NCBI RefSeq assembly: GCF_019649055.1
Contig: NW_026570349.1
Span: 1 to 64,000 of the forward strand
DNA length: 64,000 nt
Origin: Paramacrobiotus metropolitanus
Lineage: Eukaryota > Tardigrada > Eutardigrada > Parachela > Macrobiotidae
Reading direction: 5' to 3'
Shown here: positions 1 through 64,000 of the stretch, piece by piece
Position numbering within the stretch: the stretch's first letter is position 1
How the letters are laid out: every line of letters starts with the position of its first letter
Made by a program: the position numbers and the translations under genes
The notes under the pieces: generated by a model
Databases searched by the model: none
Seen by the model: the letters and a program-made list of their open reading frames with translations, nothing else
Told to the model about the DNA's origin: nothing

Positions 1-2161
1 GTGATATCCAAGAGTGGCACCTGGAACGAGTACTGGACGTGGGATTTCGCAATGGAGCCCGCTCGTTGGGACAAGGTCGCGATCGCGTATTCGTACGTAT
101 GCGAAAAGGAGAAATTATGTTTGTGATTATGCGCATTCAGTGCGCGCGTTCAGATGCCATGTGTCGCGATTGCGTGCACTCCACCTGTTGGTTGACAGCC
201 ACGACGAGGAAGGTTGCCGCCGGGATTGAAAAGTTTTTGCTTCAGCCCTGCCGGGCTGGGAATGTGCTCAAGTTATGCCATCCCCCCTTACCAGCCATCG
301 AGGTTCTACCTCCGCTTACTGCAGGTAAATGTCGTTGTTGTTATTAGCTAAAGAGTACTTCCTTGATCCTGTTCAAAACATCTTGAAATTTGCCGGGCCA
401 AAGATTCGCTGCCAGTTGTATACACTGTAAAGTTTTGCATAAGAAGCATTCCGCTGCATGATCAACCACACTTTAGCGCGGTTAGTTGAACAGCGACTCC
501 TGACGGAAGCTTTTTCAGGAATTGATTTCTAAACCTCGTTGTAGTGCGCTACTTTTTACTGAGCTGTGTGCGAGTACTGTATTTTGTTGCGGAATAAATA
601 GCTCTAACAATATTTGCAAATGTCTCTACCGCGGAAACGACCAAAATGTAAGAAACATATTTATCATAACAGATAGTATCATAGTAGTGCTAAAATAGCA
701 AACATTCTTCATACGTTGAAAATACGTACACTAACACCAGCGGAATTCAGTAGTTTCCATTATTTCAGAGGAAAATGAAATGGTTCTTCCCGATCTAATA
801 CTGGACATTTTGTCAAAAGTCATGTTTTACTTGGATACTGTTTCGCAAAGAAAGTTAAAACGGTATGTCACTATGTCTTGGAACGATAGTCACTACTCTG
901 TATACGAGTATGTGTTGTATCATTGATTACTGTACTAATTTGCTACATCGTAGCGTCCGAACCACCGTAGCTTTGTTCTCTGCTTTTTAGCGCGTAATAA
1001 TCACACGAGACATTGTAACTAAAACTAGTCTTCGTTCCTGTAGGGTGTGCGTACTGTGGAACGCTTTACTTTCCAACACGGAATCGTCGAATGATATTGT
1101 AATTGATTTCCGCGCTCTATGTCCGCAATTACAACAACGCTCCGAGACGGAAGGCTACCGCCTCGGACTACTGCCTCCATCGGGTCGTAAATACCAGGAC
1201 ACAAACGCTAGCATTAGTTAACATAAATGATCGTGCGGAAACCTTTGATACGGTTATTTTACTCGTTGCGGATGTACTCAGTCTGAAAAAAGTAATCCCT
1301 TTAATTATCGTCAAAAACTGTTCGGCAACTATAGTGAAGTCCTCGAGCGGAATGTGCAGAAGAAGCATTACTTCCGACTGGCGAAAGATTCAATTTCAGT
1401 TACTCCTCCTTAAGAAGGTCTGTTACCATGTACTGGTGCTGAATCTAGTGGCCGACTGCGGTTCATGGAGTGATGTGTTATTCCCACGTCGAAGCCGAAA
1501 GAATGACGGATTGAAGCAGCAGGATAGCCTAATCATAACTATACCGAAACTACGGTTGGATCAAAGCGACCGCGACGCCGATAGCATAGTGCAGCTTAAA
1601 CAAGCTATGGAACGCAATTGCCCACCGGTTGATCAGTCCGTTAGGAAACAGATCAAGGTTCTGCATGCCAGCTGGGTCAAACGCTTTCCCTATCCTGGAA
1701 GTGAGTGGGAAGGATTGCGGCGCCTTGTTCAACTGTACGTTTTTCTGGCATCAAGTATCTGCGCAGCTTTACTGTTTGCGCCTATGAACGCTCTGCCGAG
1801 TGTCGTATATTTTGTATGAAACCCAGACGCGAGCTGAATTTTTTTATTTTTCGCCGTATTTGTGCCGTTCTTTTACGCTTCGGGTACAAGCAATTTAGGA
1901 CTTCATTCTGTCTAAATCCTTTTATGAATTAATTTGTTTGTTGTAGCTTGGGAACGTGCGCAGCCGCGGATCATGTTCAATTTGGTGCAGACTGGAATTG
2001 GATGGACTGTGAGATATATTTTTAGTGGCTTGAATTTGAGGGATTTCGACAACCTGCCAATTGGAAACATAATATTAGCAATACTTGTTCGCGCTCACCT
2101 TAATGGCCAAAAATTTAGGCAGTGTTCTTACAAGCTTGTCGTTTCCGGTGTGCCGCTGTGA
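1..2161 (+). pseudogene. F-box family copy (subfamily I), partial and frameshifted
   Basis: Left-truncated member of the window's F-box family. Exon A is open from the edge to 324 and holds the family motif block RDRVFVRMRKGEIMF followed by a cysteine-containing tail; donor at 325 (gtaaat), phase 1. Exon F is 769-862 (F-box half, LPDLILDILSKVMFYLDTV). Exon B is 1044-1734, beginning R-VCVLWNALL. In exon B the frame is lost near 1172: an extra C in 'ctgcctccat' separates the GYRLGLL part from the HRVVN part, and the exon is 691 nt instead of a multiple of three. Exon D starts about 1947 and shows the LNLRDFDNLPIGN motif, but only after another frame change near 1990-2020. These breaks make it a probable pseudogene, unless both are sequencing errors. 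The product would have been an SCF-type substrate adaptor by analogy with F-box proteins. Confidence 0.7.
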
Positions 2162-2627
2162 CCGGCGATTTTCCGCGGCAGAGGTTGACGACATCGAAAA
2201 CTTCTCTATAGTACCGCGTACTTTGGGAAGATCTTTAGACGTGAATGCTATTTGGGAGTCTATAGCTGGAATCAGGGACAATTTTCAAACGCGTATTTGG
2301 CTTTAGTACAGCGCATCAACAGTTTGGTAAACCTAACTGCGACTGTGAGCCGCTACTTGCAGTACTCGAAAACAGTACCAAGTCAAAATAACTTTAAAAG
2401 GCAAAGAGGTTTCCTCTGCTTTTGTGGGGGGAAGACCATGTATGGAAAACCGGATGCAGTGGATTTTATTACTGTCACAGGAATCACATGTTTCATAAAT
2501 CTTAATAATTTTGTGCAGGTTACCGTCCGAAAGTCAAAAAGGACAACAAAATTTCAAAGCAGTTTCTTGTAGCAGCTTGCTTCTAAGACTTTAAAAAGCC
2601 GGAAAATCCCAGTGTAGTCCGTCAACC

Positions 2628-2682
2628 GGTAGTAATAACATCCAGCAGCGTTTGCGACTACTCCTACACGAGTAAATGTAAC
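2628..2682 (+). repeat. Dispersed repeat, copy 1
   Basis: About 55 bases around 'cagcgtttgcgactactcc' match 11106-11158 ('cagcgtttgcgactattcc') at most positions. Both lie in spacer DNA. They are probably fragments of one small transposon; no ends could be defined. The rest of 2162-2790 shows nothing I can assign. Confidence 0.5.
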
Positions 2683-2789
2683 CGCTCACTAGACGCACAA
2701 GATATGCGGGCGCAAGTTGCAAGCTGCTTCCCATGTAACCATTCAAGCGCCGGCATTTTGCAAGATACATGGTGGCCTTCTTGTCTTCA

Positions 2790-6183: not shown

Positions 6184-6229
6184 AACAAACTGAACAACAG
6201 TACAGGACATAGAAGATGTGTTCATTATC

Positions 6230-6340: not shown

Positions 6341-6603
6341 GTGTTGACTGAGCATCTGCTTCATCAATAATGCTAAAACTGAAGATGAATGAAAATAACT
6401 CGTTTTGCGATAAGCATGTGCTATTTTGTGCCGTCTCGTTAGATTATGCAACTAGAGTGGACAGATCGTTCATACATTCCGATTTGTTTCCGCTTGACCT
6501 CCGTGTTGATTAATTAGGCCTCAGTTAAAAAACTCACGAGTAAACCTAAACATTGGCTATGCATTCAACAAACATGCACCATCGTGAATCAGGACCACAA
6601 CAC

Positions 6604-8031: not shown

Positions 8032-8089
8032 ACACCATTATTTTTGAATATTCTTACACACAAGCCGGCCATATATAAGACAGGTTTAC

Positions 8090-11759: not shown

Positions 11760-14649
11760 CTAGGTCCCCGCTGATAAAGCACCATAATGGCGGGCAAGCA
11801 TGGCCAGCTGCAAATTACCCAGGGTCGCGTCACCCAAATCTCTGGCGTTCCAGTCCACAAACTGCTGGCGACTAACATGTGGTCCGTAGCTGAGAAATAC
11901 AACAGGGCCACATTTTTTATGATTAGCGCACGAGTATTGGTACTGCGAAAAAACTATTTCTTTATTTGGCAGTGCAAATTTCGATAAACCACACGTACAA
12001 ACAAAGTAGCTGCCGCAGTTCAGTCCACGGTAACCCAGGAAACGGCACCTTTCGTACCCACTTGGCGTGCAGGTTTTCCCACCAGATTTTGACTGCGGGC
12101 TTGACAGGCGGACAGAGGGCTTCCAGTGTCATTTTAAAATCTTGCAGGCACCGCAATTTTTCGGCTTTGCTGTGGATGTTTGTTAAGATCATCGAGGGAA
12201 TGGGGATCATCAAACAGAAAGATTCTTTTGTTTGCGTGAATCCGGGCATCGGATGCCGGAAATGCGGACCGCTATACTGTGCAAAGTCTACCGTGTAGTT
12301 CCTGATGACCACTCGTCGGCATACTTCGGTGAATTGCAGCGCATAAAATATCATTCCACTTAAGTTGGGATCATCAGGATTGTCGCTGTCTCGAGGAAAC
12401 CGGCGAGCAGCGGGGACGCGTATATCCTTAAGGACGATTAAAGGGAGCGTTCCTTTCATGCGAAGCACTTGTGTGACAACGGCTGCCGTGGGATAGTGAT
12501 CTTGATCAGCGCAGCGATGGAAAAGGTTGCTTATGGCCAGTGCGTGGGTGGCTGGATGAACGCATCGGTGCACGAGTTGCCCTATGTGGTAACCCTCCGT
12601 TTCGTTGCACCATGTCCATTGACGGGTGAGACTCGCAAAGTCGATATGTATGCACTTGGCGGTTGACGGATCGGGTAACAGTAAATTCCATAGCGCACAC
12701 ACTCTACGGTTGCGAAAGACATGAAATCTACGCGTATTTAACCAAAAATTGTTTTTCTTACACGAGTCAGATTGGTTACGGTACGAAACTTCTCGCCGCT
12801 TACATGCTTCTCAAAAGTAATTCCATTTACCCTTGACTTCGTGCGGCACAGATTTGGTTCAACATAAAGCTCAAATATGAATTAGTTAGCGAGAGTTTAT
12901 TTCCATTTTGCCATGATTTATTATAAATGGCATTAAGAAATACAATTTAGATGAAAATTGCAGTAAAATCGACCGGAGCGCAGCGAAAGTCCACTAATCG
13001 AACTGAAATTGAAAAAGTATGAAATTGCAATTTCATACAAGTAACTTCTCATTATTATAGACGGAAGCGCCCATCTGTGAGTATAGACCCTGCGTACTCA
13101 GTAAAATCGCGGCAACCTTAGTCTTCGTATGTGGGGTAAAAATTGGATCGTAACAGACATCTTCGGCCTTAATGCAAGGGCTGCGCTCCTGTCTACCAAT
13201 GCACAAATCCGCTCACTTTCCTAGTGTATCATAATCATTGGAATACAGTTGTTCGTTGGAGAATTTACCTTTTGGCGATCACTTGAGAGCGGAGGTCCAA
13301 AGAATGCAGCGCTTCTGACAGGAGTTCCGGAGGCAGGGTTTCAAAAACTCGATCGTTTGCTGTATAGAAACGGCAAAGAATTTATGCTTTTTATAACTGC
13401 CTAAGCATGTTTATAATACAGATACATTGAACCTAATACCTAAAAATTTGGTTTCTATTCAACTTCATTCATGCGCAGTTTTCCAAAAGTTCTTCGCAAA
13501 TTCGTAACCATAACGTATTACTTTACCAAAACAAAAAAGCATTTCTTACCGTAGCTCAAACCAACCAGCGCACGCCGTTTTAAGATATGTATATACACTC
13601 CACAAATGCATTACGAAATACACAAAATACGGTGGAAAATCACGTTCAAGGCGTCGAAGTCGTTATGTTCAACAAGGATACGGAGGATACTTTTCGGTGT
13701 GCCAATTCTTTGTTCTTAATTCATTGGTTTATTTGTGCTTGAAGGAATTAAATATTACAGAGAACAATCTTTCATAAGAATTCACTCAAGCGCAGCTTCG
13801 CTTATAGTTATGTCTAAGTTCGGTGGACCACTTACCAGCTAAACTTTTCGAAAACTGTAAGCACAACTCCGGCTTGCCACAGTAACCAAACAAGTACTTC
13901 TCTACGCCCGCAGTAATCCTTTTTTCCGTATTTTTGTGGAAGCAACCTCCATCTGTAGGACAATTATCAAAACCATATCCATTTTCTGTGAAATGCATGC
14001 ATGCAATATTCCAGATAAGAATACGAATTGCATTCGATTCGATCTCAACAAACAAGCGATCCGGGCACAGTTCCGAATTAAATCGTCTGCCGTTGCGAAA
14101 ACCCATGTCCAGCATGCGACTGATCCGGTATTCATCAATGGTGGCGTATCGCAGAGAATCCGTTGGTATAACAATTTTCTTAACGTAATCCATAACGTAA
14201 TATCTGTCTGGGTGGTGTGGGAAAGGGAGATAGTCGACAACCTGCCAGTGATGTACAACATGAATGGCCTCCTTATCGTCAGAATTTATGGCAATGCAAG
14301 TGAGGTACAAGTTCTCCGTGCCACAATTTTGTACAAGTTTTCCCGGACGAAAAACATACGGCTCGCTGTTCATTTTGCGCACTGCTACGAACACGTCCAT
14401 TGGACCGTATCTAACATTATTGTGGAATCTGCAAAAGTGAGAGCGAAACCATACCCGATCGGCGGGTACCCACCATGGCGCGATGGTATTGCAGTCGAAA
14501 TCAACAAACACCATATCACGATCGCGATCGACATCTTGAATGAATCCCAGAAAGTATTCCTTGCCAAGCAAATTTACCAGGACCACATTGCCCAGATTGA
14601 AACGGCCAGGACGTTGACCGCGCGAAAAGTACGTGCTTACATCCGTCAT
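11760..14649 (-). CDS. F-box family protein, subfamily III (intact, about 579 aa)
   Basis: Four exons: A 14649-13836, F 13359-13269, B 12703-11999, D 11889-11760; total 1740 nt, all in frame, phases 1/2/2. Exon A opens with MTDVSTYFSRGQRPGRFNLG and the conserved block VLVN..GKEYFLGFIQDV...VFVDFDC...PWWVPADRVWF, a Tudor/PWWP-like beta pattern. Its end has RDR/DRLFVEIE and a Cys-rich tail. Exon F gives LPPELLSEALHSLDLRSQVI and exon B begins RVCALWNLLLPD; together they make an F-box of normal length. The middle of B is leucine-rich (LPLIVLKD, CRRVVIRNYTVDF, CPPVKPAVK), and D holds the VDWNARDLGDATLGNLQLAML tail. By the F-box family it should bind SKP1 and act as an SCF substrate adaptor; the target is unknown. 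An acidic insert (residues DSDNPDDPN) in B is peculiar to this copy. Confidence 0.8.
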
Positions 14650-16803: not shown

Positions 16804-19168
16804 TTAGCTGTTTTTGTTTTCACGCTCGGAATGGCGGATATAATGTCGGGCAAGCATTGTCAGGCTTAAGTTGCGGAGAGGCAGCCGATCGAACTCCCTT
16901 AAATCCAAATTGTACCAGAAGGTTGAATACAGCTGGTATTCCTCTTGGTTCGTAGCTTCACATGGGCCATAACTGCAACAAAATATCGTTTCTCATTAAC
17001 TCAATTCAGATTGATCATTAAGAGGATTGCGCTACATCTTGTATGTCGTACAAGTAAGACGCATCAATATATATGAAATGAGTAAAATAATCCTTTTGTA
17101 CACGTACAATTCAAGAAGATGCCGCAGTGCCAACCACTTCTTTCCGGGATATCGGTGGCGTTTGACCCAACCAGCATGCAACCGCTTTATGTCCTCTCTG
17201 ACTGACAGATCAACAGGTGGGCAATTCTGCACAAGTTCTCGCTTAAACTTTGGAATCCACAGCTCATCGTTTTCTAATGGCATGATCGGTATTTTAATTA
17301 AAAGTTTATTCGGTTCCTTTCGCTTGATGTAGTTCGGCATTCGGGGGCCAAAATACGGATCTGTCCATATAGAGAAATCGACAATAAAATCACACACTAT
17401 CAAGCGGCGACACAGGTTTTTCAATGGCACCAGTTGAAAGTAGTTTGCTGCGACATTTGGGTTGTTGTACCAAAACAGGTTGCCGTCTACTTTGCTTTCT
17501 ACACCGGCGCGACAGCTCTTAACGATAAGCGTCAAGACCGGACGTTTCAAACGCAGGAATTCGGCAACGAGCGAAACGACGTGATTCACCGTGTCAGCCC
17601 GATGCGCCATGTTTACCAGTGCCAGTATGCGCGTCTTGGTGCTGATAAGGCGATGGAGTAGCCGTCCGATATGGTAGCCTTCTGTTTCTTGACGTTGTTG
17701 TGCTCGCTGGTTGGTAAGCGTGCAGAAGTCAATGGTCAAGGACGAATGGGATGCCGGGTCTCCAAGTAATGCGTTCCACACTGCACACACTCTGTGAAAC
17801 AGCAAAATGTTAATAACTGTATTTATTATTTACTTCTACTCACTTGCATACACCACTACACACTAAACACAATATGTTTCCTTGCCTATTAAGTTTTCCT
17901 GGAGTAACGTCCAAATCACGAAGACACATCGATAAAATTTCGAGTGGAAGGTCTCCAAGCATCATTTCAGTCTCTTCTCCAACATTCCATTTGATCTGGC
18001 TGTGCACGTTAGCTAAAGGCAAACAGTCATTGTTTTTGCAAGTAGACACATTTTTGTCAACTTTCTAGATCCTAAGGTGACGTATGGTTCCGTTGAAAGC
18101 TGAATACGGACATATGATGGAGTGAGTCAGCTACAGATACGTAAGGATGCGGTGCCAAAAACAAAAGCTTTTTTTGTAAAACCAGCGCAAAATTTCCTGT
18201 AGCTAAAATATTTATTTAGATTAGCTGTAGTCTGTACATACATAGCATAAGGCTCAATAATATAAATATGAAGATCAGTTATTACAGTTCCAAATCCCGT
18301 GTCTTGGCATTTGTTATTTTACACTAAAAGTAAGAATCATTTATTCAAGGAAATTTTTTAAGCTAGGTTAACCTGTAACAAGTTCAGGCATCTGGTTCTG
18401 GCATTGTGGCTTACTCAAACACTTGAGTAAATATTTTTCGATCCCCATACGAACTTTCTTCGTGGTTTCCGTTAGCCAGCAGCTGATGGCCCCGCACTCG
18501 TTTTTATATCTGTGCAAACATTTTATGTACATAATAAGGAACATGATTTCTCCTTCTGTGATGCGAACAAACACTCGATCCCGAGTGCCGTCTTCGTAGT
18601 GATAATAACAGTTGCGGAATCCAACATCCAGCGTGTGGATAATGTGAGACTCTTCAATGCCAGCACCAAGAGTCAACTTTTTCGAGCGGTATACTATTTT
18701 TTTGATTGGTAGCAGGCAAATTCTGTAAAAATTTCGATCATGGGGCAAATGCTCGACAACCTGCCAGGAATGCACTACTTCGAAGTCCTTAATTTCGCTG
18801 GGCGATAGGTGCAGGTTGAAGGAAACACAGCACAGGAACTGACTCGCGTAGCTGCAACTGCGCAAGAGTAGAGCAGGCTGAAAAACGTATGGTCCGGCAT
18901 CTTGCTGGCGAACGGCTACATGAACGTCCACGGGATCGTCTACCACCTGAATAGTCCTGCGTTCGTGACGCCAAACACGGTGGATGGAGACCCATTGTGG
19001 TTGGATAAGCTGACAATCGAAATCGATAAAGACCTGATCCCCATTAATATCTTGCAAAAATCCCAGATAAAACTCCGTATCGCTGTGGAAGTTGACCAAC
19101 ACTTCATTGCCCAAATTGATACATCCGCTGCGATGGGCCCGGGTGAAGTACGATTTAATAGCCGACAT
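16804..19168 (-). CDS. F-box family protein, subfamily I (intact, about 591 aa)
   Basis: Exons A 19168-18373, F 18012-17886, B 17791-17108, D 16972-16804; 1776 nt, in frame. Exon A starts MSAIKSYFTRAHRSGCINLG and has EFYLGFLQDINGDQVFIDFDC, the Tudor-like block. It ends with DRVFVRITEGEIMF and the Cys tail. Exon F is longer than in its paralogues (127 vs 91-94 nt) because of about 11 extra residues before LGDLPLEILSMCLRDLDVTP. It leaves through a GC donor (AATAG|gcaagg), the only one that keeps the AG|A-GTG junction seen in all copies. Exon B begins RVCAVWNALLGDP and contains LPLTLIV-like Leu-rich segments and NCPPVDLSVREDIKRL. D has YNLDLREFDRLPLRNLSLTML and an ERENKNS tail. An SCF adaptor role is inferred from the F-box only. 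Confidence 0.8.
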
Positions 19169-45986: not shown

Positions 45987-48900
45987 ATGGATATTTTTAT
46001 GCCATCGTATCCCTTTCGTGGTTTAGCTTCCGATCCGCGAGAGATCAATTACGGGAACATCGTACTCGTTCAGCGCGAAAATGGAGAATGGTGGCTGGGA
46101 TACGTGCAGGATATTGATGGTGACTTCATGCTCATTGATTTCGATTCTACAACGGCTCCTGCACACTGGATCCATTCACGCCACGTTCGAGCACAGCAAT
46201 TTTTAAACGATAGTGTCTGGTTCACCGACTCGATCGATCTACAAGTGGCCGCCACCGGCAGCTATCCGGTGCAGGTGGCGCTGCGCTGTACTGCCGAAGG
46301 ACCACACATCTTTCGTCCTGCTCGACTTCTCACCCCCACAGCGGTATTGGGGGTCTATTATGTCCGACTGGATGATGGGCCGACGGCGCAGTACCTTGTG
46401 GTCTGTCAATGGCAAATTGCATCTGTTATGGTTTCCGCTGTAGATGCGCCACCACTCTTCCAACAGACCAACGGGCTTTACTATCGCAAGTTCAATGTTC
46501 CCTTCACCGGTGCTTCAGCGAGCACGAGGCTACATATGCCGACAGTATGGAAATGTCTGGAAGAAGCCGGCATCAGTTCGAATGCAGCTTTTCGTGGTGG
46601 TTCTTCAAATATGTATCATGGACACAGGTCTTGTTGCAACGAAAAGGTTGCGTACCGCGTTTTCATTCGGGTCAACGAAAATTCTCTCAGTTTTGTTTGC
46701 GCTCAACTGTGGGACGATCATCCAAACTCTCGAGCAGAATGGAGTGAGGAGATGTTAGCTGAAGCATTTGCACAGCTCTACCGTTATCGACCGCTGCCTC
46801 CGCTGTCACATGATGTGGACGACGCCCCTCAGCGGGGTCTACTGTTCGGTATGTTTACACTGTCGCCCGACAAGCAGGGAAGTGGCGAGCAAGCAGCAAG
46901 CACCATGGGATCTCGTTAGTCATTCCGCGATGAATTGCTTGTGCTGGCTGTTCAGTACTCCTACAACAAGATGACGACGACAAGATGAGTGTCCATATCG
47001 AATGGCAGCTTCATCTTGAGTACGATAAGGTACTGTAGCCGTCCGCACAAGTTGCACCACTATCCGGTCTGGCCGTAGCCTTGCAGGGCACACGCTGCAT
47101 TGAACAGCGAGCAATGTGGATGCAAATATTCGTACACCACACTCTATGGTACAACTTGTGCGGGCGGCTACAGTACTTTATCAGGAATCATTTCACTCTA
47201 GAATGCGCTATAATTTTAGACATCTACGGATCCATTGAAGGCGTGGTGCATCCGGTTGTGGCTGATATTTTGATCTGTCTGGACCTACACACCCAAGCAA
47301 CGCTTAAAAGGTAACGATCAGTACTTCAGTAAGTCATACGCTGTACCGTGCGTTCCATAGAAACCAATATACCATAGTAGCCAGTAGTTAATTACAGAAG
47401 GGCTAAACAAACAGTACAGTATTGTAGCCGCTGGATGAAACGGCACCACATTTAGATCCGGCCGCTGCCTGCCCCCTCCCTGGCAGCGCACACGTTACAG
47501 CAGCGTGCGCGCTGTTTTCCGTACACCAGACTCTGTGGTGCCACCAGACTCCGTGGTGCTTGTAACTCAGTGGTTATAGAAATAACCAAAGCCAAGATTG
47601 AAGGGGAGAGACCCTGTGACCTTTAGATTCAGGTGTATTCGCTACAATGTTCGCGCATTCGTAACAATTTAGCGTACATACCTGGAAAAGGGGTTAGTTG
47701 ATCACCTAGCTGGCTATCTCACAGTCAGCTCCCTTAGACGTATGGATGATTTCGAGCGCTTGGTAGAATGCGACACTAAGCCATGATATGTGAAATTCGA
47801 ATGCTCATAATCAAAATTCGTTGTTTAAGGGTGTGCATGTTGTGGTGGCAGCTTTTATCCGCCAACTTTGTCAGCCGACACGTGATCATCGACAGCTCCG
47901 TGGTGAATCCAGAGAAACTGTTTAGCTGTTTCTGTGAGAATATCTATTATTTTACTTGGGGCTTGAACCAGGCTATAACCACACACACCCAAAGCCTCAC
48001 TATCCTCGACGACATCACCTGCACCGATTTAGCTATCATAACCAAAATTTTGGTTGCGCTGATGACCGCCAGGAAGATCCAGCTACGTTACATCCTCATA
48101 AAAGATGGCTTTACAGAGAACGGCATTACGAGAACAATTCATCATATGTACGACTTCTCAGAACCGCATGATAACGAGGCCGGCCGCACCTGGAGATGCT
48201 ATAATTTAACGAAACTGATTACGATTTGCCGGCGACTGGTTCTTCGAAATTACACAGCAAAACATATTACCAGACATATGTGGGAGCTGTTTCCTTATGA
48301 CGACTTTCCACGCCACGACGCCGGTTTCACCAGAACAGACGCACCCAGTTACCGGCTGATTTCAATTACCATCCCGTATTTAATGCTGCATTCCGCTGAT
48401 GGTGATGCCGGGATTCTCCAGCAGTTTCTGCTGGCAGCGGAAATGAGTTACCCTCCAATTGATCCAGAGGTTTACGATCGAGTGCGGTCAGTTCATCGGC
48501 GATGGGTGGAGAAACTGCAATATCCCGAGCAGTGGCGGCATATTCGATTGTTTCTCGAGCTGTAAGTGGGACGAAAACTCGAACTGTAATTTTTTCTTAG
48601 CCTTAATACTGCCGTAGGCTCGTAGCATACCGAGCTTTGACATTTCTGTCTTGTATTAAGGCGCAACTCCTAAAACATCTGAAGCAGAATTCTCTCAAAA
48701 GAAGGTTGCGGTTACACAATGTACTGATCCATACGCGCCGGGTTTGCTTGCCGATCTATAAGATTCCGCTTTAAACTGTATTGCCGCTCACGCATTTTCT
48801 CTTTTTCAAAGCCTTTTTCGTTAATTGTGCACAATGTTTTAGCGAGCGCGTTAATACTAGTTTCACCGGCTTGTAGGTACAGCGGATTCCGGCCAGATGG

Positions 48901-49003
48901 CAGCGCGTGCAACTGGACGGATGTTGACCTCCGAGCGCTGGATGTGAAATACCTATCGAAACTGGCTGTTTCAACAATTGATGCTTATTTTGTTATTGAG
49001 TGA
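45987..49003 (+). CDS. F-box family protein, subfamily II (intact, about 603 aa)
   Basis: Exons A 45987-46848, F 47220-47310, B 47830-48561, D 48877-49003; 1812 nt, in frame. The start Met at 45987 aligns with that of the paralogue at 39547 (MDxxxPSYPFRG). Exon A: NIVLVQRENGEWWLGYVQDI, PAHWIHSRHVRAQ, GPHIFRPARLL, LVVCQWQIA; the GEWWLGYVQDIDGD..IDFD block is the subfamily's version of the Tudor-like pattern. F: HPVVADILICLDLHTQ; B: RVCMLWWQLLSAN, then FTWGLNQA, ITKILVALMTARKIQLRYIL and YPPIDPEVYDRVRSVHRRWV; D: NWTDVDLRALDVKYLSKLAV. The A-F intron carries a small MITE (47030-47176). The F-box predicts a SKP1-bound ubiquitin-ligase adaptor; substrate unknown. Confidence 0.8.
47030..47176. mobile_element. 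Small MITE with GTACTGTAGCCG ends
   Basis: Left end gtactgtagccgtccgcaca and right end (complement GTACTGTAGCCGCCCGCACA) are imperfect inverted repeats of about 30 bp, continuing as caagttg. The element lies in the intron before exon F of the F-box gene. A second, worn copy begins at about 47419 (gtattgtagccg). Confidence 0.65.
47419..47570. mobile_element. Worn copy of the GTACTGTAGCCG MITE
   Basis: It starts gtattgtagccgct and shares scattered stretches with 47030-47176 (gcagc.cacacg, gtacaccagactctgtgg vs gtacaccacactctatgg). The right end is not recognisable. Confidence 0.4.
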
Positions 49004-49432: not shown

Positions 49433-49760
49433 TTAATTTACATAAAGATAAGCAAGAACGGATAACTGCAGGTTACTCAAGGAAATACAGTCCGACACCA
49501 GTGCATTTAGAAGGTAGCGTTTCATAGAATGGGACCATTCGGTAATATTATAGAACCACCCGCGCCAAGCCGGCATCCACCATGGAGGAAGAGTGGTACA
49601 GTGAAAGTCAATTAGGAGGTTGTCACCGTTAACATCCTGAAGAAATCCAAGGTAGCACTCGTTGTTTGCTCCATTAATCATAACTAGGTTCTTCATGTTA
49701 AGCAGTTGTTTATTCCTGCGTCTATCGATCACGCTCGATGTATTGGCTGATTATCGGCAT
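49433..49760 (-). pseudogene. F-box family fragment: start of exon A fused to end of exon D (subfamily III)
   Basis: The fragment begins MPIISQYIERDR like the 59052 gene (MPIISEYFSRGR), shifts frame within the first 15 codons, and then reads the exon A block ECYLGFLQDVNGDNLLIDF, LPPWWMPAW. About 70 residues in, it passes without a gap into CISLSNLQLSVLAYLYVN and a stop, which is the tail of exon D. Everything between (rest of A, F, B and the introns, about 2 kb in relatives) is missing. This is an internal deletion, not a spliced copy, since the junction is not at exon borders. Confidence 0.7.
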
Positions 49761-51576: not shown

Positions 51577-53708
51577 TTAAAAATACAGATAGTCTTGAGC
51601 GAGAAGCGCCATACTGAGATTGCCGAATGGAAGATTGTCGAACACTCGCACATCGAAATCCCGCCAGACCGAAGAACCAAAAGGTTCGCCCACTCCATAA
51701 CTACAAAAAATAAGTGCACACTCCATCCAGAAACTGCACCGACGTTGTACCAAGTCATGTTGTGCTTACTATTCTAGATGCTGTTTGAATACGGCCCATT
51801 TCTTCCCTGGATACGGTTCATCACGAACCCAGCGGGAGTGTACTTTCTTCAGCCGGTCTTTTTTGCACTCTTCCACTGCAGGACAGCATTTATCCAATGT
51901 GCGCCTGAAACGAAGCGCACTGACTTCCAGGCTTTCGTTGCCATCGAAGCGCAAACAAGGAATTTTTAATCGCAGATTAAAATCGAAGGCGAAATCGTGA
52001 AAACCAGGCATCCGGTGCTTTGCATATTTGGGAAACGTTGTTTTATCGAAGTGCACGTCGACGTTTGCGGCGCAATGGGACAGCACTAACTGCCGACAGA
52101 ACTTCCGCAGCTGAAGTGGAAATACCTTATAGTAGCGGTCACTAACGTGGGCATAAGTGATATCGAAGCCGATGAATTTAGGAGGCGGTGGTCGATTAAC
52201 GGCTATCTCCCAATGTTGCACCAGCAGCACAGACAACTGGATGTTGTTCCCAGTCAGCACGGTGTCGGTAATTCTCAAGAGAGCAGCAAGATCATCGATT
52301 TTAGTGAACCGTTCATTCGGGTTAAGCAACGACAATATTTTGGTCATACTGTTGACAGCATAATTCAGTATGAATGCGTAGTCGTAGCTTCTGGTTTCTC
52401 GGACGAACGGCCATAAGTTGTTATTGCTAAAGTCGATTGTTGTGTATACCGGTGAATTACCATCGGACAGTAGAATGCTCCACAAGGCGCATACGCTGTA
52501 AACACAACCTAGGTATATCATTTTGGAATGGATAGCAAACCGAGCAGGCGTTGGTGTTTGCATCCCGATTATCGAAAACTGCGTCATTGGTTCCTTTCAG
52601 TCACATCTTAAATTCTTACCGTTTTGCTACAATCTGTGAATGTACATCCAAACAGAGCAAAATTTCCTTTGTGACTTCGGTAGACATATAAGTGAAAATG
52701 CATCCAACGCTATCTGCAAGAATATACAAAGCTATCTTTACTCATGTGTCGGTAACTCACTCGGTATCGTAAATAATAGAAGCTAAATTTTCTCTGTGCT
52801 TGCACATGCGACAATTTCTTTATTTTTCTTAGTCGGAAAGATTTTCTTTCCCACCGAATGGGGTCAGGGTACGGACCCTTTTGTTGCATTGGTAAGAAGG
52901 TGTATGTCCTCGAAACCCGGGGATATTCTGGCTGGCAGCGAGGAAGAAGATGCTGTCTGAGACCAGATAAAATTCTTCGCGCTGTTTTCGGGCTTTCCCG
53001 GTGAATTTTGCAACAGGGACGTGCGAATACGTAGTCTTTCGATAGTGCGTGATGATATCCTGCGCACGCAATAAGGACAACAACCTCCGTCTCTGTCATT
53101 CGCACAGAGATTAGATCCACCCACTCATTGGAAGAAATAGTCTCTTCACCCTGATAAACCACTTTCAGTACTTCGTCAATATCAAACTCATCCAACCAAT
53201 CAATAACATTTGGCTTTTCTAAAGGTATCACCATTTTTTCCACATCCATCTTGCCATAGTCATCCAACAACGAACACCCAAACCGTCTACAGTTAACAAT
53301 TTGCCAGCGGTGAACGAGGTGCAGTGAAGTTGCCTCCTTATCGGCTGCTGAACTGGCTATACTGCAAAAGACCAGGTCATAATAGCAGGCGACCAGTTTT
53401 GCCGGGCGGAATATATAGGGTCCAGTTGGGTTATTTCGCAAAGCCACAAGTATATCCACTGGTTTGATGTCCGCTATAGGATACTTCTCTTCGTTGAGGT
53501 TGTAAAACCACACACGCCATGATGGAATCCACCAGGGCGGCAGGGTGGGGCAGTCAAAGTCCACGAAGAGGTCGTCACCATTGACATCTTGGAGAAATCC
53601 CAGGTAGTACTCGTTGTCGCCCACATTAACTAGAACTGGATTCTTGACATTCAGCTGGCCGTTATTCATGCGTCTACCGCGCTCAAAGTATTGGCTTATT
53701 ATCGTCAT
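51577..53708 (-). CDS. F-box family protein, subfamily III (intact, about 591 aa)
   Basis: Exons A 53708-about 52877, F 52713-52620, B 52495-51770, D 51700-51577; 1776 nt with the A donor I prefer (AAG G|gtccgt, phase 1). That donor is weak, and exon A stays open to 52710, so the boundary is uncertain. A: MTIISQYFERGRRMNNGQLN, NEYYLGFLQDVNGDDLFVDFDC, LPPWWIPSWRVWFYN, GPYIFRPAKLVACY, LVHRWQIVNC. F: MSTEVTKEILLCLDVHSQIV; B: RVCALWSILLSD, FCRQLVLSHCAANVDVHFDK, HRMPGFHDF, KCCPAVEECKKDRLKKV, PYPGKKWAVF; D: SVWRDFDVRVFDNLPFGNLSM. It shares gene structure and much of B with the 56125-59052 gene, as expected for a tandem duplicate. SCF adaptor by family. Confidence 0.75.
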
Positions 53709-54546: not shown

Positions 54547-55571
54547 TTAAGCAACATAAAGACGAGCCAGAACAAGCAGCTGTAGATTACCAAAAGGAAT
54601 ACTATCCAGTTTCCGCAAATCCAAAGTGTTCCATTTGTCGGATGCATTTTCTCCTTCGCCTTCAGGCAGTCCATAACTTAAACACCAGAACGACTTAATC
54701 ACCAGAACACGTACGAATTAATAAAGTATTTCCGATTAGTTAGCAGAAAGTTGCTTTGGAGTAAAGAAATTTGTAAACAAAACTGAGTGCTATAAACTAC
54801 ATTAATACACCTTCTTTTTATTATAAAGCATAAACGTACGGTCAAAGTATTTGTCGCAGTCCAGTCCATTTCCTTCCAGGATATGGAATCGTTGCCAGCC
54901 AGCAAAAATAAATCTTCCTTAAAATGTTTCTTCAGGGCATTTTCCACCGTAGGGCAGTACTATTCCAGTGCACGCTTAAACCGCTGTGTGCTTTCCGTGC
55001 CATCTTTCGCATCAAAACGAATTGCCGGAAAAAGAACATTAACGCAAATGGCTTGTCCCATCTGACAACATTGGGCATTGGATTATGATAAGGTGGTAAA
55101 CGCGCCATCGAACCATCAATGACGAAATGCCGCACCAGTTGACCAGTAAATGATGGCAGGCACTCTTCAGCAACTGGAACAGGATATTCCCGTGAAAATG
55201 CTCGTAAAGATCGTCTGGATGGCAGGCCGGAGCGATTTCCAGCGGAGCCCGACAATATTTGACGAGTAATACAAAAATGTGCACGCTCTTCAGGCTAAGC
55301 AAATCCACTGCAGCATGCGCGACAGCCTAGACACTGTCAGCGCGATGGTCGACGTGCAGCAGCGCGGGCTCCTTGGTTTCACAGATACCCCTTGGTGGAA
55401 CAGCGTCGCCAGCCGAAAGCCTTTTATTTCCGGGTAGCTTGGCAATGTCGTGCTGATGCCGCTGCAGTCAATCGTCACATACGCGGCGGACCCCGGATTA
55501 GGAACTAAAGTGCTGCATAATGTGTTCAATATGTAATAAAACATGTGTCCAGTGTTCACAACGCAAAGCAC
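54547..55571 (-). pseudogene. F-box family fragment: exons B and D only
   Basis: Exon B lies within about 55571-54840 and is recognisable in pieces from all three frames: TLVPNPGSAAYVTIDCSGI, SLKSVHIFVLLVKYCRAP, ILFQLLKSACHHLLVNWCG, then ESTQRFKRALE followed by a stop where the 64000-edge relative has CAA. D 54676-54547 is clean: YGLPEGEGENASDKWN, LDLRKLDSIPFGNLQLLVLA. No exon A or F was found upstream, and the RVCALW start of B is not intact. It is a 5'-truncated, decayed copy. Its closest relative in the window is the partial gene at 63370-64000. Confidence 0.7.
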
Positions 55572-56124: not shown

Positions 56125-59052
56125 CTAAGGATGAAGATAGTCACGAGTAAGAATCGCCAAACTAAGTTTGCTAAACGGAAGATTGTCGAACTCCCGTAGA
56201 TCCAAATCCCTCCAAACTGATGAACCCACATGTTGGCGTATTCCATAACTGCGAAATATTGTATATTCATATTGCTGTAGTGGACACATCTCAAAACGGT
56301 ACATACTCGTCAGCAAGTGGAAGTGTGCTTACTATTCTAAATGCTGCATGAATACAACCCACTTCTTCCCTGGATACGGAACAGTATGAACCCAGGCGGC
56401 ATGGAGTCGCCATAGCTGTTCTTTAGTGAACCAGTCCGTCGTCGGGCAGCAGTCGTCCAGTGTGCGCGTAAACCGATCTGTGCTGTCGTCGAAACTATCC
56501 TCGCCAGCAAAGCGCACATTGGGAATTTCGATGCGCAGACTGCTCAAAGTGCTGGCTTGAGCGAAACCCGGCATCCGATGTTTGGCATATTTGGGAAAGG
56601 TTTTCTTATCGAAATGCATATCAAAGTCCACGACAAACTGTGAGAAAACCAACTGCCGACAGAATTTCTTCAATTGTAATGGTAAAATCGGATAGTGGCG
56701 TTCGCTGGTTTGGAAATCGAAGAAATCAGTGCTTTCAAATTTTACACCCGGTGGTCGATTAACGGTCACCTCCCAATGTTTCACCAGCAGCACAGATAAA
56801 TGGGCGTTGTTCATAGTCAGCACGGTGCTGGTGATCTCCATCAGTGCAGCCATGCTTTCATTGTTGTTAACGCGTTGACTCAGCTTTAATAGTGACAACA
56901 CTTTGGTGTCTCGGCTCACAGCATGATTTAATACGAATCCATAATGATAGCTTGTCGTAGCGCGGTGGAACGGCGACATACCCTTTCGACTGAAGTCGAT
57001 TGTCGCGAACACTGACGAATCGACATCAGACATTAGAATGTTCCACAGGGCGCATACGCTGCAATTACGGCCAACATTCCATATGAACTAATTTTCCAGT
57101 GTTACTCGTTTTCGTGCAGATTACCGTAGAGCATTATCTGCGATATTACATGTATAATTAATGATACACCGACAAAACCGACTTTTCCGGCTTCCATTAG
57201 AAAACCGGTTTTCCCGCAACCTTTGACTCTCACACGCGTATGCTTTGCTTCAACCTACTGTAGTACAGTATCCTCTACCAATGATATGCGTATGACGGAA
57301 ACGGAATGTTGTCTTAAAGTACAGTACTTCGCATGCGGCCTTAAGTTTTCCCCTCATGCAGTACGGGAAATTTCGTTTTCCCCCGCACATGTGCCGCTTA
57401 GTCGCTTACACGAATGCAGCCTAAAAGTTGCCTGCAGCTTAAAACCGGTTTTTAGCCAACTCGGTATATCCGGTTGCGCAACTGAACAAGAGAGCAGAGA
57501 GACAACTCAGAATAACGGCAAACGTGTTGCCGCATCGCACGCGGCTTTAAACTGCAGTCAGCTTTTCGCGTGTAAGCGGCACATGTGCCGGGGAAAACAA
57601 AATTTCCCGTACTGCATGAGGGGAAAACTTAAGGCCCCGTGCGAAGTACACGATTTCGTATCTTAGTAAAAATGCATTTTCGGCGATAAATTCAGCAGTT
57701 TTTTGTATTCTAAATTAAAAACAAATGTTTCACAACGATTGAACTTTGCGGTCACACTGTGACCGTCACAGTTACGGTTCTCACCGCTTGGTAACGGCCT
57801 GTGAGTGGACGTCCAAGTAAAGCAAAGTTTCCTTCGTGATTTCAGTTGGAAGAAACGTAAAAGGGCATTCAGTTCTATCTGCAAGAAGACTCATGAAGTA
57901 GCCGTAAGACTTGTATCGTTGTGAAGGGGATTACTAAGAGTATTATGTGCCTCGATTCCCCCTCAAAGACAGGTCACCTTGAGTATGCAGTTCAAAACAC
58001 CGATTATGGGTCCTGGTTCAGAGTTTTTGCTTTTAAGCTTGTTTCAACCATTCCTTTTGAAAGTTCTGGGCTTTTACAAAATTCGAATGCGTGAGTTGTC
58101 GGTGATTATACTCAAAGTGACCGGTTTTTGAGGCACATTTGACTTATTTCGGATTGTATTTCTCTAAATAACTGTGCAATGAGCACAAGCACAACTGCTT
58201 CCAGGGATAGTGGCATGTATTTTACGACAACCCATATGAGCTGCTAACTGCTAAGAAGATACCTGAAGCTGGCATAATGCGCGGAAATTCTGGCTTGTTG
58301 GAGCGAAGATGGAGATACTTCCTCACACTGGCTACAACTTTTCCAGCTGTAACTGGACCTCTTGAGTGGATTTTGCAGCAAGGCCGCGCAAATAAATAAT
58401 ATGGCGTTGCATCGTAGATACCGCCTCCGATCACAATCAGGAAGACAATTTCATTCTCTTTATTTCGCACAAAGATTCGATCCACGAAGCGTGGGGAAAC
58501 CGTATCGGAACCCGGGTAACACGCCTTTAGATCCTCGGCAATATTAAACCCGTCAATTTCATCAGTGATTTCCGTCGTTTTTAAGCATATCACAACCTTC
58601 TCGACATCCAGCTTCGAAGATCGCTTCATCACCGACCCTCCATCCCAGTAAGCGGTTTGCCAACGGTGCACGAAATGCAGTGAGGTTGTCTCGGAATCCA
58701 CTGGCTTTCGAATGAGACGGCACAAGAACAAGTCGCAGTAGTACCAGACAACTATCGCCGGACGGAAAATATACGGTCCAGTTGGCTCGTTTCTCACCGC
58801 CACGAGTATTTCCTTATCCGTAGGATAGTATCCCTGGTTGAGGTTGTAGAACCACACGCGCCCCGCTGGAAACCACCATGGCGGAAGGGTGGTACAGTCA
58901 AAGTCCACGAAGAGGTTATCACCATCAACATCTTGAAGGTATCCCAGGCAATACTCGTTGTCAGCGACATTAACAAGGACGGGATTTTTCACATCCAGTT
59001 GTCCTTGGCGTCTGCTTCTACCACGCGAAAAGTATTCGCTTATTATCGGCAT
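56125..59052 (-). CDS. F-box family protein, subfamily III (intact, about 577 aa)
   Basis: Exons A 59052-58263, F 57878-57785, B 57058-56333, D 56248-56125; 1734 nt, in frame, phases 1/2/2. A: MPIISEYFSRGRSRRQGQLD, NEYCLGYLQDVDGDNLFVDF, LPPWWFPAGRVWFYN, GPYIFRPAIVVWYY, HFVHRWQTAY, DRIFVRNKENEIVFLI and a Cys-containing tail (FARPCCKIH). F: FLPTEITKETLLYLDVHSQA; B: RVCALWNILMSD, VLTMNNAHLSVLLVKHWEV, FCRQLVFSQFVVDFDMHFDK, HRMPGFAQ, DCCPTTDWFTKEQLWRL, PYPGKKWVVF; D: SSVWRDLDLREFDNLPFSKL. The intron between F and B (0.7 kb) hosts a 326-bp foldback element. This is the cleanest subfamily III model. F-box family membership implies SKP1 binding; exon A may recognise the substrate. Confidence 0.82.
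57324..57649. mobile_element. Foldback/MITE with about 79-bp inverted arms
   Basis: The arms 57324-57402 and 57571-57649 are near-complements, starting gtacttcgca and sharing 'ggccttaagttttcccctca' exactly. The intervening 168 bp is unique. It lies wholly in the F-B intron of the F-box gene. No target duplication is evident beyond a possible 2-3 bases. Confidence 0.75.
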
Positions 59053-60089: not shown

Positions 60090-60488
60090 TGAATGTAGAA
60101 ATACAATGAAAACGAGGGCATTTCCCGCAACTGTAGGTGCAATGAATTGACAACACGAAAATATGCGGTCCGTTGTTGGTGCGCAGCGCCACCGGAACCA
60201 TGCAGCTGAGAGTGCAGCACCGAACATCTCGCACTTGCCGGTCGATCAGACACCTAAGTCCATCGGCCAAATGCCTGTATGCCCTGATGTGGCGTGAATA
60301 AATCTAGTCGGCGGAAGCCGCCGTACAATCAAAATCAAATGACATCTGATCACCATCGATATCCTGCACGCATCCTAGCCACCATTCGCCATTCTCGCGA
60401 TGAACCAGCACAGTGTTTGAGAAATTATTTCGTGAGGGATGCCTCGTGAGCCCCGAAAAAGAATACGATGGAGCATACGATGGTCCAT
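60090..60488 (-). pseudogene. F-box family fragment: 5' part of exon A (subfamily II)
   Basis: After a possible Met at 60488 and an early frame change, it reads PSYSFSGLTRHPSRNNFSNT, VLVHRENGEWWLGCVQDIDG and DFDCTAASAD, a stop, then IYSRHIRAYRHL and, after another shift, VPVALRTNNGPHIF. These match exon A of the 39547 and 45987 genes block by block. No F, B or D exon follows. It is the only subfamily II piece on the minus strand. Confidence 0.7.
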
Positions 60489-62299: not shown

Positions 62300-63369
62300 A
62301 TGGAGTCTGCAGCAAATCAGTCAGGATTTTACCACTGAACAAGTTAAATATCGTCCCTTGAGCGGTCCTCGTTAGCCGCGTTTATCGCAGAACGGACTAA
62401 TACTCTACGCTACACGCCGATAAAAACAATGAGCGTTTTTTTCACAGCAAAAAACTATTGGAGGCGAAAAGACCAAAAATACTGAGGGAAGGGTTGGTTA
62501 CATTAACTAGCACGCGACTGGCGGAACTTCACAAACGTGTGGCCATGTATGTAGTGCATTTATGACCTTCAGGGATTCGATTAACTAGTGTGCAAACATT
62601 GCAGATCGGGGGGTTTGTTAGAACGCGATCACACCCACTGCTGTGCTCCGGAGCCGGAAGGCGATAACAGTTCCATGGAGTTAGGGTAGGCCTGGTTGCG
62701 ATTTATTTTCCTTTAAAAGCACACGCCTATCACTGTACAACCTAACACTCGCTGCTGTCTGTGGCTTTGTATGTCCAGAAAAGAAGATCACCTGCAGCAG
62801 CAGTCAACACAAACGAGGACAATTCCCACTCGAACCTCACCGGACTGGAGTGATACTCGAACGATCTGCACGCAGACACCTGCGGCCTTAATTGACGAGC
62901 CTGCTGATCGAGAAATGTACGAGCTATGGACATAATATTTTTATTCGAGATCATAGTAGGATCACTTTCAACCAAAAGTATTCTACCATGTAAATTTTAG
63001 ATCGCCGAGGCGCGCTAAAAGATCACATCACGCCGAAGGGACGTACGTATGCATTTACTGCCCGTGCACCGCGGCCGTCGCGATAACGTACTCCGGCACA
63101 TGCACGGAACGAAAGCCCGACCAAAAACCTGTCCCAGCCGCCCACCGGATGCACAGAAGAGCGACGTTCCTGAGCTAGTCGAACCAAGCTCCCACATTTC
63201 GTAGTTGTTACCGTTAAGGACTGCTTACTTATCGTAAACTGATAGTTCCCTTGAGGATATTACCTGTAGGTCTTTAAGTATGGCTTCCGCTTTTTTATTG
63301 TATGCAGCGGCTGTTTTTCCTGCTTCGTTTTAACTGATTATGTAATTGTCGATTGATTTTTAAATTTTG
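62300..63369. other. Spacer
   Basis: No supported gene or repeat. Confidence 0.4.
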
Positions 63370-64000
63370 CGTAGCCGCGACGTGCCTGATGTAAACCGTT
63401 GCCAATTCCACGAATCCAGCTACAGTTTTTAGGGGCACAATGTGACAATGGCAAGGGATATCGATAGTCTGGGGTATTTTGTCCTTCGCCTTTGGGTAGC
63501 CCATAACTACAACACCAGAACGACTTAATCAAGAAATCCCGAGCTAACTAATCATGTACAGATATTCCCAACCAGCTATCAGAAGGTTGATTTCGAAAAA
63601 CGAAATTTTTTGAACGCACTTGATAATTGTTAACCATCTTAACGCCTCACCATTTTAGTTTAAAGCTTTCATTAGCTTTTTATAAACCCTTTTATACTTA
63701 TACAGTTCAAGTATTTGTCGCAGTCCAGTCCATTTCCTTCCGGGATAGGGAATCGTTGCCAGCCAGTGAGAATCAATCTTCTTAAAACGTTTCCTCAAGG
63801 CACTGTCAACCGGAGGGCAATGTTGCTCCAGTGCACGCTTGAACCGCTTTGTGCTTTCCCTGTCGTCTTCCGCATCGAAACGCATAGCCGGAATTCGTGA
63901 TTCTCGCCGAGACTGCAGACTGGAACTGTGTCATTTTGACGTCACTAACAAACAGGGATATTACAGTGCGCCAACAGGAGAATCATGCATTCGTTCTGTT
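63370..64000 (-). CDS. F-box family gene, 3' part (cut by the right edge)
   Basis: The end of exon B runs from about 63900 to 63704 and is open: IPAMRFDAEDDRESTKRFKR, ALEQHCPPVDSALRKRFKKI and IPYPGRKWTGLRQILEL, ending at donor GAACT|gtataa as in the other copies. Upstream, toward the edge, the match is lost to a frame change near 63945. D begins at 63506 (YGLPKGEGQNTPDY), aligns with D of 54676-54547 for about 14 residues and then diverges, so the tail may be damaged. Exons A and F would lie outside the window. Whether the gene is functional cannot be told. Confidence 0.55.

What the first reader, a model, noticed from the sequence alone, without database searches (positions are those of the whole stretch)
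1..64000. A lineage-expanded F-box family with an N-terminal Tudor-like module, 14 loci in 64 kb
Seen: fourteen loci repeat the same ordered blocks. Eight show the whole exon plan A-F-B-D, with F-box halves split by an intron after an Arg codon, phases 1/2/2. Six intact models sum to exact multiples of three. Known: F-box proteins recruit substrates to SCF ubiquitin ligases; rapidly expanding F-box families occur in nematodes and plants. Inferred: exon A (pattern G..VLV...(Y/W)LG(F/Y).QD..GD...DFD....W....RVW) may be a Tudor/PWWP-like reader, giving a modification-reading or pathogen-protein-reading ubiquitin adaptor. I know of no named family with this architecture.
Basis: partly seen in the sequence, partly recalled or inferred. 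Interest (0 to 1): 0.75.

Follow-up and report, generated by a model that had tools for sequence, protein, structure and literature searches.

The report
Fragile-X-like F-box gene family explosion
In what is very probably a water bear's genome, hundreds of gene loci carry the front end of the fragile X protein, and in nearly every locus examined closely it sits ahead of an F-box, the plug that links proteins to the cell's disposal tagging machine.

Summary
Fourteen places in the window repeat a four-exon plan A-F-B-D with intron phases 1/2/2; six models look intact. F joined to B scores as an F-box in most examples. Exon A is not a lone Tudor/PWWP domain: it matches the whole N-terminal domain of fragile X protein (FMRP; Agenet/Tudor 1, Agenet/Tudor 2, KH0). 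Foldseek's first ten matches are all FMRP/FXR, and a second gene class in the same genome bridges the sequence gap to that genome's own FMR1. Four class I genes carry FMRP-like domain and F-box in one open frame, so the fusion does not rest only on inferred splicing. At least 462 loci with the N-terminal exon were listed, by searches that hit their scoring limits. In the one subgroup tested, every exon is under purifying selection, strongest in Tudor 1. Assembly statistics fit the tardigrade Paramacrobiotus metropolitanus. Best reading: a very large set of SCF ubiquitin-ligase adaptors built on a captured FMRP N-terminal domain, with a conserved, methyl-reader-like first Tudor and a variable C-terminal half. 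Architecture is well supported; SKP1 binding, ligand and role are inferred. No listing or passage seen describes this architecture. B's fold is unresolved.

The parts
45987..46848 (+). g45 exon A (FMRP-NTD-like)
   Evidence: donor GTATGT, phase 1
47220..47310 (+). g45 exon F (first half of F-box position; no Pfam F-box match for this gene)
47830..48561 (+). g45 exon B (second half of F-box position and variable region)
48877..49003 (+). g45 exon D with stop
20740..21553 (+). g20 exon A, used for the structure model (donor GTACTG, not the best-scoring candidate)
21644..21734 (+). g20 exon F
21819..22478 (+). g20 exon B (GC donor at its end)
22542..22679 (+). g20 exon D with stop, start approximate
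58263..59052 (-). g59 exon A
57785..57878 (-). g59 exon F
56333..57058 (-). g59 exon B
56125..56248 (-). g59 exon D, approximate
52877..53708 (-). g53 exon A (donor GTCCGT, weak)
52620..52713 (-). g53 exon F
51770..52495 (-). g53 exon B
51580..51700 (-). g53 exon D, approximate
18373..19168 (-). g19 exon A
17886..17976 (-). g19 exon F (acceptor ambiguous by 3 bases; GC donor)
17108..17791 (-). g19 exon B
16825..16974 (-). g19 exon D, approximate
13836..14649 (-). g14 exon A
13269..13359 (-). g14 exon F
11999..12703 (-). g14 exon B
11784..11894 (-). g14 exon D, approximate (weak match)
39547..44245 (+). g39: A, F, B, D all present; B carries an in-frame TAG; a retroelement frame lies between A and F
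24841..27311 (+). g24: A open, F present without a clear acceptor, B with TAG and frame breaks, D present (decayed)
28268..30208 (+). g28: A broken, F not found, B and D present (decayed)
3..1735 (+). g1: A tail, F, B (frame broken), D-like stretch at 2018-2104; 5' end outside window
49574..49714 (-). A fragment followed by a D-like tail (weak)
54553..54681 (-). isolated D exon
60157..60477 (-). A fragment with in-frame stop
63703..63885 (-). g63: B tail; its A exon is probably outside the window

Best explanation
These genes encode F-box proteins whose N-terminus is a captured FMRP N-terminal domain (Agenet/Tudor 1, Agenet/Tudor 2, KH0). Supported by computation: the domain identities, the fusion (four class I genes hold FMRP-like domain and F-box in one open frame), at least 462 loci with the N-terminal exon, and purifying selection on all exons in the subgroup tested. 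Inferred: the F-box docks on SKP1-CUL1, making each protein an SCF substrate adaptor. Tudor 1 of class II keeps the FMRP pocket position F32 as an invariant Phe with conserved aromatic and acidic neighbours, while the second-Tudor pocket residue Y96 is lost. So Tudor 1 most likely binds one conserved, probably methylated, partner (a histone, or an RGG-type RNA-binding protein as reported for human FMRP), while KH0 and B vary between paralogues and diversify what is bound or ubiquitinated. The family probably arose when an F-box gene captured the N-terminal domain of an FMR1 copy (this genome's FMR1 reads through in one frame) and then spread, largely by tandem duplication.
For: AF2 model of A: two beta barrels then strand-helix-strand-strand-helix. 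Foldseek ranks 1-10 are all FMRP/FXR1/FXR2 N-terminal domains, the best six over 245-253 columns at E 1.8e-7 to 5.6e-6. In VIA-align's 50 rows only the three FMRP entries reach past model residue 156, i.e. into KH0 (4ova_C Z 8.5, 184 residues). 31-member A profile against PDB sequences: six best all FMRP/FXR, E 0.0025-0.015, next unrelated 0.17. Class I N-terminal profile: FMRP/FXR six best, E 1.2e-10 to 5.7e-9, next 0.069. Class II vs class I 97% probability, E 4.4e-11, 185 columns; class I vs own FMR1 98%, E 3.9e-14 (E-values of single comparisons). Single-frame fusions of 476-566 codons, F-box or F-box-like over Pfam cut-off in 4 of 4. Pooled dN/dS: Tudor1 0.18, Tudor2 0.28, KH0 0.38, F 0.35, B 0.38, D 0.25. 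F32 equivalent Phe in 31 of 31 class II; putative pocket role of F32/Y96 from passages of PMC5430443. Four SKP1 places.
Against: Profile comparison of class II A with own FMR1 is negative or insignificant; the link runs through class I, whose loci were picked because they match FMR1. The A model has low confidence (mean pLDDT 58) and superposes poorly as a whole on FMRP (TM-score by query 0.24-0.29, rmsd 10-12 for the six best); Z 8.5 is little above what unmatched models often reach (note). Pfam Tudor/Agenet hits are weak, and unrelated TibC_1st matches as many members as Tudor_FRX1 (3 of 31). The profile of the four single-frame genes did not return FMRP at E<=1, and three of those four have Leu at the F32 position. 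g45 joined F+B has no Pfam match. No transcript, SKP1-binding or ligand data.
Confidence: 0.6

Rival explanations
1. An immune-type repertoire like nematode F-box expansions: each adaptor recognises foreign or parasite proteins and is driven by an arms race.
For: Size and clustering are comparable: five Caenorhabditis species have 39 to 1426 F-box genes, with dN/dS peaks above 1.5 in the C-terminus reported for 73 of 95 C. elegans pairs (PMC8665587, passages). Here B and KH0 are the most variable parts, and several window copies are decayed.
Against: No domain has pooled dN/dS above 0.38 and no 20-codon window exceeds pN/pS 0.80 (only 11 pairs for B); Tudor 1 is strongly conserved. Means over divergent paralogues could hide single positively selected sites, and only one subgroup was tested.
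Confidence: 0.3
2. FMR1-directed regulators: the FMRP-like domain binds FMRP complexes (or FMRP's own partners) and the F-box brings the ligase to them.
For: Passages of PMC5430443 report that FMRP residues 1-200 pull down FXR1 and FXR2; the abstract start of PMC5688124 reports FMRP, Fxr1 and Fxr2 as partners of SCF-Fbxo4 and Fxr1 as its substrate; class I keeps clear similarity to FMR1.
Against: Class II has diverged beyond direct profile detection; hundreds of loci against one KH_9-bearing FMR1 is hard to explain.
Confidence: 0.12
3. Mostly non-functional amplification, carried by duplication and transposons.
For: Broken copies and fragments in the window; a retroelement frame and long inverted repeats in introns.
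Against: All four exons show dN/dS well below 1 in the subgroup tested; most listed matches lie in frames without stops.
Confidence: 0.05
4. Exon A is a generic tandem Tudor reader unrelated by descent to FMRP (like Sgf29 or UHRF1).
For: VIA-align ranks Sgf29 tandem Tudor Z 8.9 (rmsd 4.0) over 112 residues, tied with FMRP Z 8.5; Polycomb-like Tudor is third among the sequence hits of Tudor 1 alone (E 0.0056); other Tudor and MBT chains also align over up to 222 columns in Foldseek, at E 0.005 or worse.
Against: FMRP/FXR lead Foldseek and the A4 and class I sequence profiles, and class I ties A to FMR1.
Confidence: 0.1

Closest known systems
FMRP / FXR1 / FXR2 N-terminal domain (Agenet1-Agenet2-KH0)
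   Same: Order and number of subdomains, Foldseek match over about 250 columns, retained F32 pocket position in class II
   Different: No KH1/KH2 match in the four single-frame genes at E<=0.5; joined to an F-box and C-terminal region; Agenet 2 pocket residue lost in class II; hundreds of loci
Nematode F-box/FBA2 and F-box/FTH families
   Same: F-box plus a divergent C-terminal region, large tandem expansions
   Different: Here the F-box is central and preceded by an FMRP-like domain; no region with dN/dS above 1 found in the subgroup tested
F-box/LRR proteins (FBXL2, FBXL3)
   Same: F-box match; the FBXL3 match of the single-frame genes runs on for roughly 45 residues past the F-box; B shows alternating strands and helices
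   Different: B model finds no fold match at E<=0.001; no LRR family among the Pfam hits of the B exons and class I genes scanned
F-box proteins with chromatin or reader domains, e.g. KDM2B (domains recalled; its F-box chain appears)
   Same: F-box in the same protein as chromatin-type domains
   Different: No FMRP-like N-terminal domain, no mass expansion (recalled)

Membership tests
F-box protein family (Pfam F-box clan) | F-box motif scoring over curated cut-off | tested here: met
   Class I single-frame genes 4 of 4 over a cut-off; other class I F-box exons 3 of 4 over; class II joined F+B 2 of 8 over, 7 of 8 matched at E<=1, g45 not. Met for class I; for class II met by some members only
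F-box protein family (Pfam F-box clan) | Binds SKP1 in an SCF complex | not testable with these tools
   Four SKP1 places exist in the genome; binding needs experiment
FMRP/FXR family | Tandem Agenet/Tudor plus KH0 N-terminal domain | tested here: met
   by fold and profile, not by Pfam cut-off
FMRP/FXR family | KH1, KH2 and C-terminal RGG part after the N-terminal domain | tested here: not met
   The four single-frame genes continue into F-box and B; their only Pfam families at E<=0.5 are F-box and F-box-like. So a bearer of the N-terminal domain, not a member of the FMRP family
FMRP/FXR family | Methyl-ligand binding by the Agenet pockets | tested here: inconclusive
   F32 position kept (31 of 31 class II), Y96 position Leu in the consensus; binding not tested
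F-box/LRR (FBXL) | Leucine-rich repeats C-terminal to F-box | tested here: inconclusive
   (LRR chains such as TAP and tropomodulin only at Z 4.2-5.3 among mixed folds)
PWWP domain proteins | PWWP domain | tested here: inconclusive
   No PWWP family in Pfam at E<=0.5 among 31 A exons; PWWP chains appear at Z about 7 on the first barrel only

The most novel reading that the evidence does not exclude
A single capture of the fragile X N-terminal domain by an F-box gene founded a new animal class of ubiquitin-ligase adaptors, hundreds strong, that read methylated RNA-binding proteins or histones through Tudor 1 and mark ribonucleoprotein or chromatin assemblies for turnover, possibly during entry to or exit from the dried state.
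Probability: 0.15. Interest if true: 0.9.

Novelty: new variant of a known kind. Interest (0 to 1): 0.72.

Why it matters
Lineage-specific F-box expansions are known in nematodes and plants, but the searches made here turned up none built on a fragile X protein domain and, by title, none in tardigrades. With 462 or more loci the family would be among the larger gene families of this animal, and it gives a natural collection of hundreds of diverged FMRP N-terminal domains, which could show what that domain, whose ligands are still debated, is built to bind.

Tried and rejected
Profile comparison of class II A (A1, A2, A4) with this genome's FMR1 gave nothing significant (E 0.16, 0.16, 0.4). B exon: AF2 mean pLDDT 54; Foldseek no match at E<=0.001; VIA-align best Z 5.9, mixed folds, so LRR is only a hint. 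Pfam Agenet searched through the genome: 0 matches. Fatty-acid-binding gene as a tardigrade marker: uninformative. Viral contigs: 16 pattern matches, none a relative. Literature on an FMRP-like plus F-box architecture: searches (listings and abstract starts), passages; nothing seen describes it. The library holds only open-licence papers and no paper was read whole.

AP-2 sigma and IL-2 receptor hits of the first A profile (E 0.02-0.06) are absent with the deeper profile and were dismissed as noise.

Rows dropped before counts: dN/dS pooling used only pairs that have both A and B and dS below 1.5 (37-56 pairs by domain); the tree used the 28 of 31 class II rows longer than 230 residues, the 9 of 11 class I rows longer than 180, and FMR1. 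Only 8 of 29 joined F+B models went to Pfam, and 6 of the 11 class I N-terminal rows. L042 (a class II place with a 444-codon frame holding a TGA) was fetched and not examined.
Full report
What is in the window. Exon A of the gene at 45987 finds relatives on both strands of the window. Reading frames, splice signals and searches with exons F, B and D give 14 family places. Six look intact (g14, g19, g20, g45, g53, g59), with GT-AG or GC-AG splice sites and phases 1, 2, 2. The F|B intron interrupts an Arg codon in the F-box motif K-R-V-C-x-x-W. Over window and 20 distant loci, 24 of 29 F-B junctions show the expected GT directly after two bases of an Arg codon; for the other five the script found none, one of them being g19, which has a GC donor. 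Broken copies: g24, g28, g39 and g1; fragments: 49714, 54681, 60477; g63 runs out of the window.

Which organism. The genome behind the window has 169,799,020 bases in 533 contigs, contig C1 is 4,484,719 long, and window G+C is 41-48% by 4-kb step, mean 43.7%. Paramacrobiotus sp. TYO is published with 170,483,395 bases in 684 scaffolds, longest scaffold 4,484,941, G+C 43.46% (PMC8277472, passages and table). The numbers are close, not equal. I infer that this is that tardigrade in a filtered form; that it is now named P. metropolitanus is recalled (PMC11191345 gives P. metropolitanus a 170 Mbp genome; passages). No marker gene confirmed it.

F and B are an F-box. Alone the halves do not score as F-box. 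Joined, 7 of 8 examples match F-box or F-box-like at E<=1 and 2 of 8 pass Pfam's cut-off; g45 does not match. In class I genes of the same genome the F-box often lies in one exon: of the four such exons given to Pfam, three pass with E down to 2e-8 and one is below. A profile of six class I F-box regions finds F-box chains as its seven best PDB sequences (FBXO44, FBXL2, FBXO6, KDM2B, F-box DNA helicase 1, and two short SKP2-type chains, 1ldk_E and 1fs1_A, the second identified from memory; E 0.0034-0.19).

Exon A is an FMRP-type N-terminal domain. AlphaFold2 on g20 with nine window sequences gave a model of modest confidence (mean pLDDT 58) with two barrels and then strand-helix-strand-strand-helix. 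Foldseek against the PDB puts FMRP, FXR1 and FXR2 N-terminal domains in ranks 1 to 10; the six best (4qw2, 4qvz, 4ova) align over 245-253 columns (E 1.8e-7 to 5.6e-6). As rigid bodies they superpose poorly (TM-score by query 0.24-0.29). VIA-align gives 4ova_C Z 8.5, 184 residues, rmsd 9.9, and Sgf29 tandem Tudor Z 8.9 on 112 residues, rmsd 4.0: a tie in Z but not in coverage, since of the 50 rows only the three FMRP entries reach into the KH0 part. By sequence, a 31-member profile (A4) matches FMRP/FXR as its six best PDB sequences (E 0.0025-0.015; next 0.17); the first, nine-member profile had put FXR1 and FMRP on top among noise. Pfam gives weak Tudor_4, Agenet and Tudor_FRX1 hits in 12, 5 and 3 of 31 members (best E 0.0072, 0.00015, 0.13), and an unrelated family, TibC_1st, in 3.

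A bridge to FMR1. The genome has one KH_9 match, in a 570-codon FMR1 frame without stops. Searching the genome with that protein gives 39 matches at E<=1, five of them at E<=0.001: FMR1 itself, a degenerate KH-region copy at C107, and FMR1-like N-terminal frames on C49, C7 and C25; most of the rest are weaker N-terminal matches. Eight of the listed places were read, in frames of 75 codons or more. Five show an uninterrupted F-box frame behind the FMRP-like exon (L023, L024, L025, L028, L030), L027 shows it in two frames, L026 only the second half, L029 none. I call these class I. An 11-row class I profile matches FMRP in the PDB at 1.2e-10, running into KH0, this FMR1 at E 3.9e-14, and class II exon A at E 4.4e-11 over 185 columns (single-comparison E-values). 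Class II against FMR1 directly is negative. The class I loci were chosen by their match to FMR1, so only the class I-class II link and the F-box behind them are independent evidence. In a tree rooted by assumption on FMR1, class II is one clade (28 of 28 rows, ultrafast bootstrap 88) and class I is not.

The fusion without splicing. I picked four class I places for their long open frames among the 150 rows. All four have an ATG-started frame of 476-566 codons that holds the FMRP-like domain and the F-box, with F-box or F-box-like over Pfam's cut-off in 4 of 4. Against my reading: a profile of these four found FBXL3 but no FMRP at E<=1, and compared more weakly with A4 (E 3.2e-5) and FMR1 (E 1.3e-4) than the broader class I set did. 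Also, the place C35:60941, which scores the same as the picked C195:16899 and may be its other haplotype, has an open frame of only 299 codons.

How many. Four searches returned 136, 152, 150 and 140 matches, each near the number of candidates the tool scores (135 of 715, 150 of 785, 150 of 1077, 140 of 680). Of 576 listed rows, merged within 1,200 bases, the union is 462 distinct loci on 124 contigs, 313 class II and 149 class I, no overlap. Some may be unmerged haplotypes (C11/C523, C35/C195, C231/C259). These are N-terminal exons; the exons behind them were looked at only in the window, in 20 class II loci, 12 class I loci and seven further stretches of C93 and C155. In those seven, of eight A exons found, six have an F hit, four a long B hit and seven a D hit. 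The loci cluster, e.g. 34 on C35 and 33 on C82.

Selection. In a group close to g45 (two window genes and 18 others, of which 13 in all have a long B), pooled dN/dS over pairs with dS below 1.5 is 0.18 for Tudor 1, 0.28 for linker and Tudor 2, 0.38 for KH0, 0.35 for F, 0.38 for B and 0.25 for D. No 20-codon window exceeds pN/pS 0.80 (50 pairs for A, 11 for B). All four exons are thus kept as protein, Tudor 1 most strictly. This tests one subgroup only.

Function. The FMRP alignment places the invariant Phe48 (31 of 31) on FMRP F32 and Trp32 (aromatic in 30 of 31) on Y16; Asp49 is kept in 28 of 31 and Trp57 in 31 of 31. F32 and Y96 are putative methyl-pocket residues of FMRP, whose tandem Agenet domain is reported to bind methylated histones and RGG-type proteins such as FUS and LSM14A (PMC5430443, passages). 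The Y96 position is Leu in the class II consensus. In class I, Phe is kept in 11 of 11 rows of A5 but in 1 of the 4 single-frame genes. I therefore propose a conserved Tudor 1 ligand and a variable KH0 and B. SKP1 occurs at four places, so the partner exists. SKP1 binding, ligand, localisation and expression are untested.

What B is. AlphaFold2 shows alternating strands and helices, but with mean pLDDT 54 and no significant fold match. FBXL3 matches the single-frame genes over the F-box and roughly 45 residues beyond (E 0.0049). Leucine-rich repeats are a guess. B of class II and class I are related at the start (83% probability, E 9e-6, 76 columns).

Known or new. Searches for F-box with tardigrade, FMRP, Agenet or Tudor, and for FMRP KH0 and tardigrade FMR1, showed no title, abstract start or passage describing this architecture, in an open-licence library only. 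The two Paramacrobiotus papers do not contain the word F-box in their main text. Nematode F-box families are the nearest parallel in size and style (PMC8665587, passages). I rate this a new variant of a known kind: a large F-box adaptor family with a new, fragile-X-derived front end.

Noticed in passing
window 40746-42047 (+): 434-codon open frame with zf-RVT (zinc-binding in reverse transcriptase, E 4.1e-7), i.e. a retroelement piece inside the A-F intron of the broken gene g39.
   Followed up: partly
window 8057-10134 (-) and 2882-5413 (-): Protein kinase frames; at 8057-9790 a kinase frame is followed by a Kelch-repeat frame on the same strand, possibly one kinase-Kelch gene, with further kinase pieces at 2882-5413.
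   Followed up: partly
window 57324-57405 / 57568-57649 and 47024-47059 / 47147-47182: Long inverted repeats (82 nt, 93% and 36 nt, 92% complementary) in the F-B intron of g59 and the A-F intron of g45; may be small transposon remnants.
   Followed up: no
L002, G000:C5:3432252-3433961: This genome's FMR1 reads through in one frame of 570 codons without introns, unusual for an animal FMR1 (the comparison is recalled); may hint at a retrocopy.
   Followed up: no
G000:C107:304068-305061: Second FMR1-like stretch, mainly over the KH region, with three in-frame TAG; probably a decayed copy.
   Followed up: no
G000: C11:1888052 and C523:5125; C35:56183 and C195:12145; C35:60941 and C195:16899; C231 and C259: Pairs of family members with equal or nearly equal scores on two contigs, which may be unmerged haplotypes and would slightly inflate the copy count.
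   Followed up: no
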